A stretch of 27,932 nucleotides of DNA, taken from positions 1-27,932 of the IMG/VR virus record IMGVR_UViG_3300043409_001343; one strand, 5' to 3'. The notes under the pieces were generated by a model. That model did no database searches. It was not told where the DNA came from and saw nothing but the letters and a program-made list of their open reading frames with translations. Shown in pieces: positions 1,325 through 27,932 of the stretch. This DNA is from a virus. Position 1 is the first letter of the stretch. Each line of letters starts with the position of its first letter. The position numbers were made by a program, and so were the translations under genes.

Positions 1325-1512
1325 GCGAAATAGAATCCCTACGAAAAGAGGTATTACTTCTGCGCAAAAAATGCCAAAAACTTGAGAGCAATATAATAAA
1401 AAATTCTAGCGCAAATCGCATTGATCTGCCTTGCGAGTGCGAAAACCCGCACTATACTCAAACTACAGCAACCAAAACCAACCGAATATGCACCCTGTGT
1501 GCAGGAGTTTAA
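1321..1512 (+). CDS. Small coiled-coil/Cys-rich protein, 63 aa
   Basis: The ATG lies in an ATGA overlap with the preceding gene. Residues 2-26 form a heptad-like helix (ESLRKEVLLLRKKCQKLES). The C-terminal half carries CEC (38-40) and CTLC (57-60), a possible single zinc site. A helix plus a metal knuckle suggests a dimeric binding protein, but no family is recognised. A sigma70-like promoter for the next gene (1431-1458) lies inside this reading frame, so the last third of the gene doubles as regulatory DNA. Confidence 0.55.
   Translation: MSEIESLRKEVLLLRKKCQKLESNIIKNSSANRIDLPCECENPHYTQTTATKTNRICTLCAGV
1431..1458 (+). promoter_or_regulatory. Sigma70-like promoter ahead of the ligase gene
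   Basis: TTGCGA (1431-1436), 16 bp, then TATACT (1453-1458). It lies 59 bp upstream of the ligase start and shares the TTGC -35 start of the other promoters in this window. It sits inside the 3' end of the preceding gene. Confidence 0.5.
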
Positions 1513-1516
1513 AAAA

Positions 1517-2062
1517 ATGAAAAAGATACCGACAATATTTAAACGCGACGTTGAAAATATGAAGCTAGTTTTAAGCGAGCAAAACCTAAAGTGTGATTGG
1601 GTATTTAAAGGCGAAGGTATTGCTACTCGCAAATATGACGGGACATGCTGCCTGGTTCGCAATGGTATTTTATACAAGCGCAGAGAGCTAAAGAAAGGCG
1701 ACAAAGAGCCCTTAGGTTTTGAGTTGGCTGATTTTGACAATGAAACAGGTAGGACGGTTGGATGGGTTCCAGTTTCAAAAGATGACCCAGCGGATAAATA
1801 CCATAACCTAGCTTTTGATTTATACTCTCACCTGAAGGATGGAACCTATGAATTGCTTGGAGATAAGGTTCAGGGTAACCCAGAAAAGATAAGCGGTCAT
1901 ATTTTGCTTAAGCATTCTCATATGGAAGAAATGTACCCGCCAAGAACTTTTGAAAGATTGCGCGAATGGATTAAAGATAAAGACATTGAAGGGATTGTCT
2001 TCCGTCACGAAGATGGGCGAATGGCGAAAATTAAAAAGCGTGATTTTGGCTTTGCGCGATAA
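1517..2062 (+). CDS. Minimal RNA/nucleic-acid ligase (nucleotidyltransferase), 181 aa
   Basis: The start is ATG 1517, preceded by CAGGAG at 1502-1507. An in-frame start at 1421 would lack this site and would precede the promoter. The protein shows the signature of covalent nucleotidyltransferases. Motif I is KYDGT at 39-43, with Lys39 the expected AMP-acceptor. A motif III-like stretch follows around 109-116 (GTYELLGD). Motif IV is EGIVF at 158-162 and motif V is KIKKRDF at 171-177. At 181 residues it is a core catalytic domain without added OB-fold or C-terminal domains, resembling stand-alone phage RNA ligase 1-type proteins (DUF5565-like, from memory). The expected role is 5'-3' end joining of nicked RNA, for example repair of cleaved tRNA or RNA. 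RNA versus DNA substrate cannot be told from sequence. It has its own promoter, so it may be expressed apart from its neighbours. Confidence 0.8.
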   Translation: MKKIPTIFKRDVENMKLVLSEQNLKCDWVFKGEGIATRKYDGTCCLVRNGILYKRRELKKGDKEPLGFELADFDNETGRTVGWVPVSKDDPADKYHNLAFDLYSHLKDGTYELLGDKVQGNPEKISGHILLKHSHMEEMYPPRTFERLREWIKDKDIEGIVFRHEDGRMAKIKKRDFGFAR

Positions 2063-23111: not shown

Positions 23112-25430
23112 TTATAGTCCTATGCTTAGAGAGATTGATATTTTTTCGTAAGTGTACCCGCCAGATCCTCCTGCGGAAAACTCATAAGCCCCAGCGGCGC
23201 CAGCTCCGCTATTGCTGCGCGCCACGCCATCTAGGTCAAATGATAGCACAGCCATTCCAGATGGCACTCGGTTTAGCATTTCTGTCGCCGCTGCTGTCAA
23301 GTGGTAGTCGCCACCAACCGCCGGTACAGCTCTCGGTGTTGTCGTCCAGTTTACAAACTGATCCATAAGTTGCGTTTGCGTATAGCCTTCCGCGAGCAGA
23401 TTTGGCGAGCTTGATGACAGCCAATAACTGCCGAGGTATTGATCTGCTGATGTGTTTTCCGGAAGCTCACCTGCGCTTCTTCGCGTATTTCCGAACAGCG
23501 AAACGTTTCCGACGTTCCCTACGCTGTATTCATACGCCCAGTTGCCAACTGAACCGCTGCCGTCACCCAAATTAAATCGATCATCTTTAATATTGTAGTT
23601 GTCGTAGATCGAGTATTTTGATACGCCGCGTTTTTGCACGCCGTTTGGCGCTATTTTTGTAGCTATAGCGTCGTTGTACATGCGTGAGCAGCGGTCGCCG
23701 ACAGCTGTGTTGTGATAGTCAATATAGTTCGTAATCGTCGTCAAATCGCCGTCTGCATAGGCGTTCATACAGATAACGCTAACGCCAGCTTCATATTCGT
23801 AGACGTTTTGAATATTGGCAACGCCAACATTTACAGTGTTTAAACTTGTGGTGTTTAGATTCAGCTGTCTCAGCCTGTTATTGTAAATAACACGCCCGTG
23901 ATTTCCGGCCGTTGACCCAGTATCATCAAGCCCATAATCAGGGATGTCACAACCAACAATAGATTGAGGATAACTGGTTGTCCCATCGTCTTTTGGGTGG
24001 CTGTCTCTATTCGCAGAAACAACCCCTGCGAATAGTGGGATAGCTCTGTCGGTTGGTCCTAATCCGTTTACTGCGAAATCAATAGCGTTTCCACCGTCGA
24101 GCGTAACGTTTCTAAAATAGCGATAAGAGTGCCAGCCGATACCGTTTTTGTTTAACGAGTTATTTAGCGTTACATCCTCGAAATAAACATTCGTTGCCGG
24201 GGTTCCTGTGGTCGAGTATCCAACGTGCAGGTATGCAGAGGCTCCCGCTTTGTACGTCAAACCCCGCCAAAGCGTGTTAGATGCCAAGCTAACCTGCACC
24301 GTGGCCTCTACCGTGATTGCTGCGTTTGCTAGCGGGTCAGACTCAACAACACAGCGCCCTGTACCTGGGAAATTGCCGCTAGCTACTCCTATGGGGTAAG
24401 TTACAGGTGATCCGCTATCGTTAATAAAACGAATCGTAGCGCCGCCGAAATCGTTATGGCTCTTGTTTGTATTGTTCCACGCTCTAACGGCGGTAAACGC
24501 CGCAGTTAGCGTAGCGTATGGGGTTGTTTTTGCTGTAGCTGGGTCGGATGACACGGCAGGAGTGCCAGCGCCAACGCCGTTAACATACGCGAATGCACCC
24601 CCGTAAGCGCCATTGCGGTCACAGAACACGCGCAGCGGTGTGTGTGGCAGAGCTGTAGGCCAAGCTGCGCCATCAACATCAAGATTCATAATTGCAGATG
24701 AGTCACCGATCCACGGATACAGCTTGGCATTAACTTTGCTAAATCCTCCTTGAGTTTGACCGCCCATATTTAGCGTAGCCGAATGACACTCAGGCGGAAA
24801 GCCTTGAGTAACCAGTGTTGAAATTGCTGTGGAGTTGCTAAACACGCTAGCACTCTGCGTAACCCCATCCGTCACATAAAACTCAACACACGCCACTTGG
24901 CGACCATTTCGCGCGGTGTCAGATGCTGGCACAAACTCAACGTAAACGTTGTTTGTTGTTTCAGTGTCGCCGTTAAAATTTAGCCAGCTGCCGAATGGCT
25001 TTTTATACGCCAGAGTGCTGCTGTTAGTTGCTGTAACTGTGTCAGCGTTAGCCCCTGTATAAAACCCTGCTGCAATTCCAGCCGTAACGATTGTGGTGCC
25101 GCTGTAGATCCAGTCATCTAACGAAATGTACAGCGTTAGATTGCTTCCGTCAGTTGTAATGAGGCGCTGGTCGCCGTTGGGGTGAGTGCGATGTAAAAAC
25201 GTCTGCCCTGTAATTGTGCGGCTAACGGTGGTAGTTGCGCCATTAGCCAAAAAACCTGGATCTTGAACTGTAAACGTTAACTTTGACGCATCTAGCGTAC
25301 CGGCGGTGCTAGTTATCCCATCCAGCACAACAATGGCCACCCAGCCATTGCCGCTTGGGCCGATCCCGCCTTGTGGGTCGATTGCCGTACTGTCTGCAAT
25401 CGTTATGCTGATTAGGTCGCCAGTTGCCAT
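23112..25430 (-). CDS. Large beta-helix virion protein, 772 aa
   Basis: The start is ATG 25430, the first gene of the minus-strand late operon, 27 bp after the predicted -10 box. The N-terminal 230 residues are beta-rich repeats (ITSTAGTLDASKLTFTV, NVYVEFVPASDTARNGRQVA). Residues about 285-600 include ATAKTTPYATLTAAFTAVRAW (the PYATLxxAF opening of pectate-lyase-like folds), and then NVYFEDVTLNN, YRYFRNVTLDGG and GRVIYNNRL, rungs of a right-handed parallel beta-helix. The C-terminal part ends FDLDGVARSNSGAGAAGAYEF, a common end of beta-helix proteins. It may be a second spike or capsule-binding protein. No signal peptide is seen. It is placed far from the tailspike gene, at the head of the operon. 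Confidence 0.65.
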   Translation of the reverse strand: MATGDLISITIADSTAIDPQGGIGPSGNGWVAIVVLDGITSTAGTLDASKLTFTVQDPGFLANGATTTVSRTITGQTFLHRTHPNGDQRLITTDGSNLTLYISLDDWIYSGTTIVTAGIAAGFYTGANADTVTATNSSTLAYKKPFGSWLNFNGDTETTNNVYVEFVPASDTARNGRQVACVEFYVTDGVTQSASVFSNSTAISTLVTQGFPPECHSATLNMGGQTQGGFSKVNAKLYPWIGDSSAIMNLDVDGAAWPTALPHTPLRVFCDRNGAYGGAFAYVNGVGAGTPAVSSDPATAKTTPYATLTAAFTAVRAWNNTNKSHNDFGGATIRFINDSGSPVTYPIGVASGNFPGTGRCVVESDPLANAAITVEATVQVSLASNTLWRGLTYKAGASAYLHVGYSTTGTPATNVYFEDVTLNNSLNKNGIGWHSYRYFRNVTLDGGNAIDFAVNGLGPTDRAIPLFAGVVSANRDSHPKDDGTTSYPQSIVGCDIPDYGLDDTGSTAGNHGRVIYNNRLRQLNLNTTSLNTVNVGVANIQNVYEYEAGVSVICMNAYADGDLTTITNYIDYHNTAVGDRCSRMYNDAIATKIAPNGVQKRGVSKYSIYDNYNIKDDRFNLGDGSGSVGNWAYEYSVGNVGNVSLFGNTRRSAGELPENTSADQYLGSYWLSSSSPNLLAEGYTQTQLMDQFVNWTTTPRAVPAVGGDYHLTAAATEMLNRVPSGMAVLSFDLDGVARSNSGAGAAGAYEFSAGGSGGYTYEKISISLSIGL

Positions 25431-25456
25431 GATGTTGCCCGCTAAATATTTCCCCC

Positions 25457-25485
25457 ATTCTAATCCAGCTTAGCCATGGGTGCCA
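25457..25485 (-). promoter_or_regulatory. Predicted late-operon promoter
   Basis: On the minus strand TGGCAC (25485-25480), 17 bp, TAGAAT (25462-25457), lying 27 bp ahead of the start of the first late gene. The -10 equals that of the 2427 promoter and the -35 differs from its TTGCAC by one base. The -35 is inside a perfect palindrome, so it may be regulated. Confidence 0.5.
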
Positions 25486-25492
25486 CTGGCAC
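25480..25492. promoter_or_regulatory. Perfect palindrome over the late -35, putative operator
   Basis: GTGCCA-C-TGGCAC is a perfect 6+6 palindrome with a 1-bp centre. It covers the predicted -35 of the minus-strand promoter. The GTGCCAC half recurs in three boxes inside the repeat region (25597-25919), and GTGGC occurs in the spacer of the opposite promoter at 26000-26004. Confidence 0.5.
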
Positions 25493-25596
25493 AGCCAAAA
25501 ATTCACAAAACCCCGCAATATGCGCCAGTTTGTCGCTTTTCTAACTTTTCTAACTTTTCTAACCTGCCTTTAGAACCAAGTTAGAAAAAAGTTGCC

Positions 25597-25919
25597 TAGT
25601 GCCACGTGGCTTAGCGGGGAGTTTTCTTATTTTCTTATTTTTATTATATATATAAAGATATAAAGATATATATATATATAAGAAAGAAAGGGGGGGGTAG
25701 GTAAGTAAGAACTAAAGGGGGTGCGTCAGAAAAGTTAGAAAAGTTAGAAAATAAGAAAACTCTTCTGTAGCCTTAGTGCCACGCGGGTTTCGTTTTCTAA
25801 CTTGAAGTTAGAAAAAAGTTAGAAATGAGAAACCAGCAAAACGGCTTTTCTAACTTTTCTAACTTTTCTAACTTTTCTAACCTGTAAGTTAGAAAAAAGT
25901 TTCTTAGTGCCACGCGGCC
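25597..25919 (+). repeat. Three TAGTGCCACG(C/T)GG boxes within the control region
   Basis: TAGTGCCACG followed by TGGC (25597-25610), CGG (25774-25786) and CGGCC (25905-25919). The first contains the perfect palindrome GCCACGTGGC. The first and third are followed by TAGCGGGGAGTTTTCT, so the repeat unit is longer: 9-mer run, inverted 9-mer, GTGCCACG box, GCGGGGAG, then 9-mer-like bases again. The middle unit is degenerate. Confidence 0.7.
25624..25681. other. Extreme AT-rich tract, candidate DNA-unwinding element
   Basis: Nearly pure A/T, starting TTCTTATTTTCTTATTTTTA then alternating TATATA with AAAGATAT repeats, directly after the first repeat unit and followed by a run of eight Gs (25690-25697). 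Together with the iteron-like arrays this is the arrangement expected of a replication origin. Confidence 0.5.
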
Positions 25920-25983
25920 TAGCGGGGAGTTTTCTAACTTTTCTAACTTTTCTAACTTATTTTGAAAAATAGAAAATAAGAGC

Positions 25984-26012
25984 TTGCATTATGCGTAACG
26001 TGGCGCCATAAT
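25984..26012 (+). promoter_or_regulatory. Predicted promoter of the rightward early operon
   Basis: TTGCAT (25984-25989), 17 bp, CATAAT (26007-26012), 47 bp before the first rightward gene. The spacer contains ACGTGGCGCC, related to the GTGCCAC boxes on the reverse strand. A short TCGG-ATGA-CCGA hairpin lies in the leader at about 26025-26036. Confidence 0.6.
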
Positions 26013-26059
26013 GTCATCACTGGATCGGATGACCGACCAGACAACCAAGAGCTATAAAT

Positions 26060-26212
26060 ATGAAGTTCATTCACGCACTAAACAAAAACATCTATATGCC
26101 AATCCGTCCAGTAGTTGGCGGAGTTGAGTTTAAAGTTCAGGAGACTGGCGAGGTAAAGGTTTTAACAGATCATCAAATCGTAAAATTGCTATCAAAGGCT
26201 GGCGAGCAGTGA
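26060..26212 (+). CDS. Small hypothetical protein, 50 aa
   Basis: ATG 26060 is preceded by AAGAG about 6-10 bp upstream and is the first gene after the rightward promoter. The product begins MKFIHALNKNIYMPIRPVVGG and continues VEFKVQETGEVKVLTDHQIVKLLSKAGEQ, a short beta-strand/helix protein. No family is recognised. The stop TGA (26210-26212) overlaps the GTG of the next gene, a coupling that supports it being real. Confidence 0.6.
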   Translation: MKFIHALNKNIYMPIRPVVGGVEFKVQETGEVKVLTDHQIVKLLSKAGEQ

Positions 26213-26391
26213 CCAGCCACAAGGGCGAACCCGCGCCCACCCCAAACGCCCAGCGCCAGCGCGATTTTAGGGCGAAGAAGAAAGCTGCGCAGCTGCATGA
26301 GGTTCGCGGCATATTTGCAACGATCGAGCATGAAGCGCTGATTAAGGCTTTCGCTCAACAACTAACCAATCAAGAGAGAGCAAAACCATGA
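26209..26391 (+). CDS. Small basic protein, possible DNA-binding, 60 aa
   Basis: GTG 26209 is in a GTGA overlap with the upstream gene. The N-terminal half is basic and Pro/Gln-rich (TPNAQRQRDFRAKKKAAQ). The second half, EVRGIFATIEHEALIKAFAQQL, has the strand-helix look of short phage proteins that resemble ribbon-helix-helix regulators. Recognition is weak. As an early gene next to the repeat region it is a candidate for binding the repeats or boxes; this is inference. The stop overlaps the next ATG (ATGA 26388-26391). Confidence 0.55.
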   Translation: MTSHKGEPAPTPNAQRQRDFRAKKKAAQLHEVRGIFATIEHEALIKAFAQQLTNQERAKP

Positions 26392-27488
26392 CTAAATTCC
26401 CAATTCCAATAGAGGTGCACGCGTCGCCAGAAGCTGGCGCCATGCCATCAATCCCCGCCGTTTTCGGCGATGACAACCTGCGAGCACTTTTTGAGCAGGT
26501 GCGCGAAGAAGTGGCGCATGAGGTGCCCGACGTTGAAACTCTGGAGGGCCGCGCGCGCATTCGTTCAAATGCGGCAAAAGTGGCATCCTCAAAAACGGCG
26601 ATAGACAAGCCGATAAGGGATTATTTGCGAGAAATGAAATCAATCCCGAAGATTTTAGAGAAGAGTGCCCGCGAAAGTGTTGAGCGGTTTGATGATCTTA
26701 AAGCTGAACTGATGGCGCCCCTTGAGATTGCACAAGAGCATCAACTACGGCAGCTGGAAAAATTAGCTGTGGTGGTTTCTCGCTGCGCTGAACGCGACGC
26801 GTTCTCCCAAGGGGTTGACGCGATGCTTGAGTGGGCCAAGACTGTGGACGTAGAAAGTTTTTGGCCAGAGCTACAGAAAAAAGCCAAAGTCGCGCGTGAT
26901 GCAGCGGTGACGGTAGCCACTGACGCGCTAGAAAGATTAGAGCGTGAGGAGGTCCAAGCCGCTGAGCTTAAACGCCTGCAAGCGGAAGCCGCAGAGCGTG
27001 AGCGCATAGATCGTGAGCGCCAAATAGCAGAGCGCGCAGCGGAACAAGCGCGAGAACAAGAGCGCGCACGCGCACAGCAGGAGCGCGAGCAACTAGAGCG
27101 CCGCGCAGTTGAGGCCAAGCAGCGTGAAGAAGCTCAAAAGCTTGAGGCTGAGCGACAAAAGTCGGCAGCCGAGCGCGCAGAAGCTCTGCGCGAGCAACAA
27201 CAGAAAGAAGCAGAAGCAAGAGCGGCGGCTGAAGCAGAGCGCGCAAAAGCCGCAGCGCTAGCGCAAGCAGAAAAGGCGCGCGAAGATGAGCGTAAGCGCA
27301 TAGCTGAGGAAGAGGCGCAGCACGCGGCAGAAGCCAAGCGACGCGAAGAAGACAAGGCGCACAGAATTAAAATAAACCGTGCTGCTCTAGTTGCGCTAAT
27401 GACGTGCGGAATTGATGAAGACGCCGCCAAAGCGGTTGTCATCGCTATCGCAAAAGGTAGCATCCCGAACGTTAAAATATTTTATTGA
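26388..27488 (+). CDS. Large coiled-coil protein of the early operon, 366 aa
   Basis: ATG 26388 is in an ATGA overlap with the preceding gene. Residues 1-170 are mixed helical (LRALFEQVREEVAHEVPDV, SSKTAIDKPIRDYLREMKSI). Residues about 180-325 are a continuous, highly charged coiled coil, mainly Ala, Glu, Arg, Gln and Lys. The last 42 residues (INRAALVALMTCGIDEDAAKAVV, ending IAKGSIPNVKIFY) form a small conserved C-terminal unit that I recall from proteins encoded near recombination genes (RecT/Erf, exonuclease) in gammaproteobacterial phages. No nuclease or ATPase motif is present. A role in DNA recombination or replication scaffolding is likely but not proven. Confidence 0.7.
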   Translation: MTKFPIPIEVHASPEAGAMPSIPAVFGDDNLRALFEQVREEVAHEVPDVETLEGRARIRSNAAKVASSKTAIDKPIRDYLREMKSIPKILEKSARESVERFDDLKAELMAPLEIAQEHQLRQLEKLAVVVSRCAERDAFSQGVDAMLEWAKTVDVESFWPELQKKAKVARDAAVTVATDALERLEREEVQAAELKRLQAEAAERERIDRERQIAERAAEQAREQERARAQQEREQLERRAVEAKQREEAQKLEAERQKSAAERAEALREQQQKEAEARAAAEAERAKAAALAQAEKAREDERKRIAEEEAQHAAEAKRREEDKAHRIKINRAALVALMTCGIDEDAAKAVVIAIAKGSIPNVKIFY

Positions 27489-27900: not shown

Positions 27901-27932
27901 CGTCTTAAATAAAGTTGTTTGAATTTCTATAG

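What the first reader, a model, noticed from the sequence alone, without database searches (positions are those of the whole stretch)
25537..25956. Dense two-orientation 9-mer arrays with an AT-rich tract: origin or packaging locus
Sixteen exact copies of TTTTCTAAC or its complement lie in 420 bp, arranged in runs of 3, 1, 4 and 3 forward copies, each followed by an inverted copy, plus GTGCCACG boxes, a nearly pure A/T tract and a G8 run. It is the only long gene-free region and separates divergent operons. This fits a replication origin with iterons, or a pac/cos site, and the 9-mer is not one I recognise.
Basis: partly seen in the sequence, partly recalled or inferred. Interest (0 to 1): 0.75.

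Follow-up and report, generated by a model that had tools for sequence, protein, structure and literature searches.

The report
Phage replication origin with shared element
A 420-base stretch between a virus's two gene blocks looks like the place where its DNA copying starts, and the small 'GTGCCACG box' in it turns out to be a short sequence that unrelated Pseudomonas phages and plasmids also carry in their own putative replication origins.

Summary
The array is real: 16 exact TTTTCTAAC copies (11 forward, 5 inverted) at 25537-25956; shuffled windows give at most 2. It flanks an 89% A+T tract between divergent gene blocks and is kept in a near twin. Best reading: an iteron replication origin, built like PICI origins (two iteron sets around an AT-rich tract). 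Support: arrays of the same 7-mer core lie just 3' of helicase genes in unrelated phages; Serratia phage Eta has a GGATAA array in the matching place, next to its primase gene. pac/cos has no support. New: the 'GTGCCACG boxes' are copies of a ~23-base motif, AGCC[CT]TAGTGCCAC..GG.TT, with a 23-base exact match in phiKMV-like phages and a Pseudomonas plasmid. It is in 51 distinct contexts; 45% have an 8-mer repeated at least 4 times within 250 bases, against 1.7% of control positions; each replicon has its own iteron, often beside a primase, helicase or Rep gene. It is absent from 5,426 E. coli genomes at blastn sensitivity and from the open papers searched. It is not a supported hairpin. Its function is inferred: a host-directed priming or helicase-loading site.

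The parts
25537..25563 (+). three tandem forward iterons TTTTCTAAC (9-base period)
25580..25588 (-). one inverted iteron
25592..25614 (+). shared motif, copy 1 (TTGCCTAGTGCCACGTGGCTTAG)
25620..25690 (.). A/T-rich tract (89% A+T), candidate unwinding element; a TA-repeat length difference in the twin
25690..25697 (+). G8 run (G9 in the twin)
25734..25751 (-). two tandem inverted iterons
25769..25791 (+). shared motif, copy 2 (AGCCTTAGTGCCACGCGGGTTTC): 23 bases identical to phiKMV and to a P. mendocina plasmid
25793..25815 (.). one forward and one inverted iteron
25846..25881 (+). four tandem forward iterons
25888..25896 (-). one inverted iteron
25900..25922 (+). shared motif, copy 3 (around TTTCTTAGTGCCACGCGGCCTAG)
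25930..25956 (+). three tandem forward iterons
25984..26012 (+). weak sigma-70-like promoter by eye, TTGCAT-17-CATAAT (twin TTGTAT-17-TATAGT); not called by the promoter scan
   Evidence: inference
26060..26212 (+). first rightward ORF (50 aa), no family match
26209..26391 (+). second rightward ORF (60 aa), no family match
26388..27488 (+). phrog_1376 protein; in relatives it is followed by exonuclease and RecT/Bet genes, and in two of three it is preceded by a primase gene
23112..25430 (-). first leftward gene (772 aa, no family match), left flank of the array

Best explanation
The stretch 25537-25956 is a replication origin of the phage. A phage initiator, probably a replicative helicase or a Rep protein with a winged-helix domain whose gene lies in the missing part of the genome, binds the TTTTCTAAC iterons on both sides of the A/T tract, melts the tract and loads the helicase. 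The three AGCC[CT]TAGTGCCAC..GG copies are an accessory replication signal read by the host machinery (priming or helicase loading), because replicons with different initiators and primases share it. Shown: the array, its conservation in the twin, the recurrence of the motif in iteron arrays and beside replication genes. Inferred: initiator binding, melting, and the role of the motif.
For: Array far above chance and conserved in a near twin, where TAGTGCCAC and the following GG stay intact in all three motif copies while flanks and iterons drift. Iterons in both orientations around an A/T tract, the layout reported for PICI origins (PMC6092414). Arrays with the same core TTCTAAC lie just 3' of helicase genes in unrelated phages: AAA_25 + winged helix (L189, L207), DUF927 + Cch helix-turn-helix (L170), a P-loop-like protein without a Pfam match (L171). 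Motif: 51 distinct contexts, 45% with an 8-mer repeated at least 4 times within 250 bases versus 1.7% of 1669 control positions and 1.7% of 240 ORF-free ones. Genes near the motif: Rep_3 (L316), plasmid RepA_C (pMBUI4, L318/L320), VapE (L275), DUF927 + toprim (L277), Toprim/DnaG-like (L245), VapE + PriCT-2 + Toprim primase 2.3 kb away (Persinger, L317), DnaB (L254), DUF3987/primase (L293, L305), PolA-like phrog_4756 (L256, L281-L283, L291). Serratia phage Eta: primase, then 13 GGATAA copies around an AT-rich stretch (other windows at most 6), then the phrog_1376 homologue. Cumulative GC skew turns at 24-25.5 kb, though gene direction turns there too.
Against: No replication gene is on the fragment, so the initiator is unknown. 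Origin activity was not measured. Skew is confounded with gene direction. The homologous gap in Shewanella phage 1/41 and Aeromonas phage 62AhydR11PP lacks a dense array. About half of the motif contexts have no iteron array. Most motif hits come from searches that fixed 14-16 of its bases, so those bases cannot be used as proof of conservation. No hairpin: covariation no better than shuffled and ssDNA folding no better than shuffles. No fixed polarity between motif and A/T tract.
Confidence: 0.72

Rival explanations
1. A large operator: a phage repressor or activator binds the 9-mers and controls the divergent early and late gene blocks.
For: Intergenic position between divergent blocks; a promoter-like sequence starts 28 bases after the last iteron.
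Against: 16 sites with an A/T tract is unusually large for an operator; the promoter-like sequence lies outside the array; arrays of the same core elsewhere lie 3' of helicase genes, not upstream of regulators; the motif also occurs beside plasmid Rep genes.
Confidence: 0.13
2. A DNA packaging site (pac or cos) bound by the small terminase.
For: Repeats in both orientations occur in some pac sites (own knowledge); the array lies on the late-gene side.
Against: 2.7 kb from the presumed terS; in headful phages pac is commonly in or near terS (own knowledge); similar arrays in other genomes adjoin replication genes; plasmids with the motif have Rep genes and no need of a pac site.
Confidence: 0.05
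3. A partition/centromere site (parS-like) of a phage-plasmid.
For: Iteron-like arrays also serve as centromeres; one motif copy holds GCCACGTGGC, which resembles a parS core (own knowledge).
Against: No ParA/ParB was recognised on the fragment (families were searched for only part of its genes); the other motif copies are not palindromic; phiKMV and KPP25, lytic phages (own knowledge), carry the motif.
Confidence: 0.05
4. The array is the origin, but the shared motif is not a replication signal; it is a binding site for some other host protein (nucleoid or transcription) that phages placed in their open regulatory regions. (Compatible with the first half of the best explanation.)
For: phiKMV has the motif upstream of its early promoters without an iteron array recognised by eye.
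Against: Strong association with iteron arrays and with replication genes of many kinds.
Confidence: 0.2

Closest known systems
PICI/SaPI-type replication origin (two iteron sets flanking an AT-rich region, 3' of pri-rep; PMC6092414)
   Same: Short iterons in both orientations on both sides of an AT-rich tract; arrays of the same core lie 3' of helicase genes in other phages
   Different: Found in a tailed phage with its own head genes; adjacent rep gene not seen; carries three copies of an extra shared motif
SCCmec Cch2/CCPol-MP putative origin (PMC7581432)
   Same: Short iterons used by a helicase and an A-family-polymerase primase; here a helicase with a Cch helix-turn-helix (L170) ends beside a TTCTAAC array and PolA-like phrog_4756 genes carry the shared motif
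   Different: Different iterons; no such genes on this fragment
Iteron plasmid oriV (Rep_3, RepA)
   Same: Iterons with an AT-rich region; the shared motif lies beside Rep_3 (L316) and RepA_C (pMBUI4) genes
   Different: 9-base tandem period rather than about 20-base iterons; no DnaA box in the array
RSF1010 ssiA/ssiB and phage G4-type priming sites
   Same: Proposed role: priming signal near an origin
   Different: No motif match in IncQ1, IncQ2, G4 or R388 sequences, nor in the half of R100 examined; no supported hairpin

Membership tests
Iteron replication origin (PICI-like layout) | Multiple short iterons in two sets flanking an AT-rich tract | tested here: met
Iteron replication origin (PICI-like layout) | Adjacent initiator/primase gene | tested here: inconclusive
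   None on the fragment, which ends at 27932; met in Serratia phage Eta at the matching place and for TTCTAAC arrays in L170/L189/L207
Iteron replication origin (PICI-like layout) | Initiator binds the iterons; fragment replicates autonomously | not testable with these tools
   needs experiment
PICI (satellite) | No complete head gene set of its own | tested here: not met
   Window encodes its own terminase and portal and further leftward genes in the position of head/tail genes
DnaA-dependent origin | DnaA boxes (TTWTNCACA) | tested here: not met
   None in 25431-26059; 3 in the window, 2.9 expected
pac/cos site | Lies in or next to terminase genes | tested here: not met
   2.7 kb from the presumed terS
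pac/cos site | Virion DNA ends there | not testable with these tools
   needs virion DNA reads
RSF1010-type ssi (for the shared motif) | Hairpin with flanking single strands | tested here: not met
RSF1010-type ssi (for the shared motif) | Sequence similarity to IncQ ssi | tested here: not met
   Best matches at 4 mismatches, scattered, in IncQ1 pCCK381 and IncQ2 pRAS3.2; RSF1010 itself was not available

The most novel reading that the evidence does not exclude
AGCC[CT]TAGTGCCAC..GG.TT is an undescribed replication signal, spread among unrelated phages, phage satellites and plasmids of Pseudomonas and relatives, that hands any locally opened origin to the host replisome (a host-range-specific priming or helicase-loading site independent of the initiator type).
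Probability: 0.35. Interest if true: 0.82.

Novelty: new variant of a known kind. Interest (0 to 1): 0.6.

Why it matters
Origins of most environmental phages are unknown. Here the 9-mer array fits a known origin layout, and the accompanying motif gives a searchable tag for origins across unrelated phages, satellites and plasmids. If the motif proves to be a host-read replication signal it would explain part of replicon host range and offer a general way to locate origins in metagenomic phages and to find the host factor involved.

Tried and rejected
Hairpin model of the motif: RNA folds looked promising in single cases, but pairing shows no covariation beyond shuffles (z 0.8) and ssDNA folding is no better than shuffles: rejected. 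Fixed polarity motif to A/T tract: not found. Known priming sites: no match in G4, R388, IncQ1, IncQ2 or half of R100. DnaA boxes: none in the array. Rfam: only sub-threshold hits, mostly miRNA-type, that the inverted repeats would explain. A viral-contig search with the phrog_1376 protein found no relatives, so the missing early region could not be recovered. Literature: no paper in the open library holds the motif strings; subscription-only work on priming sites could not be checked. The genome-contig scan of an 18-base form of the motif gave only one match, in a cyanobacterial MAG, which may be chance.

Full report
OBSERVATION. Sixteen exact TTTTCTAAC/GTTAGAAAA copies lie at 25537-25956 and nowhere else in the window; 0.27 are expected and the largest of 100 shuffles has 2. 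Three TAGTGCCAC boxes (25597, 25774, 25905) all point the same way. The gap 25431-26059 separates a leftward block (including portal and terminase genes) from a rightward block.

CONSERVATION. A near twin (L039/L069) keeps the array (14 exact copies), the tract (TA-repeat and G-run length differ) and all three boxes; TAGTGCCAC and the following GG are unchanged in every copy, and most changes next to them fall on positions that also vary in the wider family. A weak promoter-like sequence (25984-26012) starts 28 bases after the array and has changed in sequence but not in spacing; this is by eye, the scanner did not call it.

THE SAME 9-MER CORE ELSEWHERE. Pattern searches in viral contigs brought arrays of 6-13 TTCTAAC copies, several in both orientations with AT-rich centres, in unrelated phages. 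In L189 and L207 the array starts directly after the stop codon of a helicase-like gene with an AAA_25 domain and a C-terminal winged helix; in L170 it is at the 3' end of a DUF927 gene with the helix-turn-helix of SCC Cch helicases; in L171 it follows a P-loop-like protein without a Pfam match. PICI origins lie 3' of the rep gene and have two iteron sets around an AT-rich region (PMC6092414). In P2-like prophage-type contigs (L021, L027, L033, L044, L051) similar arrays lie beyond the portal/lysis end with no helicase seen in reach, so the core alone does not prove an origin.

SYNTENY. The window's 26388 gene is phrog_1376. In Serratia phage Eta the order is primase, 601-base gap, phrog_1376 homologue, exonuclease, Bet; the gap holds 13 GGATAA copies in both orientations (other windows: mean 3.8, maximum 6) around an AT-rich stretch. 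Shewanella phage 1/41 has primase, gap, two small genes, phrog_1376 homologue, RecT; Aeromonas phage 62AhydR11PP has the gap, the homologue, exonuclease and RecT without the primase next to it; both gaps have only weak repeats.

THE SHARED MOTIF. A blastn search of the region hit 72 phage records, 69 of them Pseudomonas, the listed ones mostly through one short stretch. 23 bases (25769-25791) are identical in phiKMV (early non-coding region), and nearly all of it recurs three times in KPP25 inside an array of TTTCGTAAC/TTGTCACGA repeats next to an AT tract. Plasmid hits are non-coding too: P. mendocina (23 of 23), pPSEST02, p3/pHS87b, pMBUI4. Pattern scans of viral contigs gave many more, each array with its own iteron: CCGGAACA, CTGGGACA, TCCCACCA, ATTCCAG, AGTCGATA and others. 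Among 51 non-redundant contexts 45% have an 8-mer repeated at least 4 times within 250 bases, against 1.7% of controls. Columns outside the search pattern are conserved as well: TT after the GG (36 and 48 of 51), CT before AGCC (39 and 38), AG downstream (33 and 40); the central bases were fixed by the search pattern and are no evidence.

REPLICATION GENES NEAR THE MOTIF. Rep_3 (L316), RepA_C (pMBUI4), VapE (L275), DUF927 + toprim (L277), about 890-aa Toprim proteins (L245 tested; similar lengths in L298, L301, L303, L304, L306), VapE + PriCT-2 + Toprim (Persinger, 2.3 kb away), DnaB (L254), DUF3987 or primase (L293, L305). Five loci have phrog_4756 or its homologue immediately downstream; the alignment shows polymerase-A-like motifs and the model (mean pLDDT 65, so weak) matches family-A DNA polymerases best (Foldseek E about 2e-5), like CCPol, the primase of SCCmec (PMC7581432). 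Other loci had only terminase, integrase, tail or unknown genes nearby. Neighbours were read locus by locus, without a counted control for gene content; the iteron association is the counted result.

WHAT THE MOTIF IS NOT. Not a supported hairpin; no polarity with the A/T tract; not in E. coli genomes at blastn sensitivity; no match in IncQ, G4, R388 or half of R100; no DnaA boxes in the array.

MECHANISM. Most likely: initiator binds iterons, A/T tract melts, helicase is loaded, and the host replication machinery uses the motif for priming or loading. The first three steps follow the established behaviour of iteron origins; the last is inference from the host-limited, initiator-independent distribution. 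Host: 106 of 114 matching phage records are Pseudomonas, so the window's host may be Pseudomonas or a relative; this is a lead only, and phage collections are biased.

Noticed in passing
L256:8873-10195, L281:3870-5138, L282:576-1925, L283:1692-3050, L291:2702-3952: phrog_4756 ('unknown function') and homologues look like small family-A DNA polymerases, perhaps CCPol-like primases; the shared motif lies about 50-110 bases upstream of each gene.
   Followed up: partly
L021, L027, L033, L044, L051: P2-like prophage-type contigs carry GGTTAGAA/TTCTAACC arrays beyond the portal/lysis end; no helicase gene seen nearby. Function unclear.
   Followed up: partly
L102:733-757 and its counterparts in phiKMV-like phages: The motif is conserved in the early non-coding region of the listed phiKMV-like phages, about 140 bases upstream of the first annotated early promoter in phiKMV.
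   Followed up: partly
L276:4004 and 5958: P. mendocina plasmid pHN21SC3150TT-1 has two motif copies in opposite orientation, each with its own repeat array, on either side of an AAA_14/DUF4143 gene.
   Followed up: no
window 1421-2062: An RNA ligase gene (phrog_14301; Pfam RLIG1) in the rightward block.
   Followed up: no
L286:5096-5613: Three motif copies in both orientations inside a GTGGCA repeat array: here the iteron resembles part of the motif itself (GTGCCAC).
   Followed up: no
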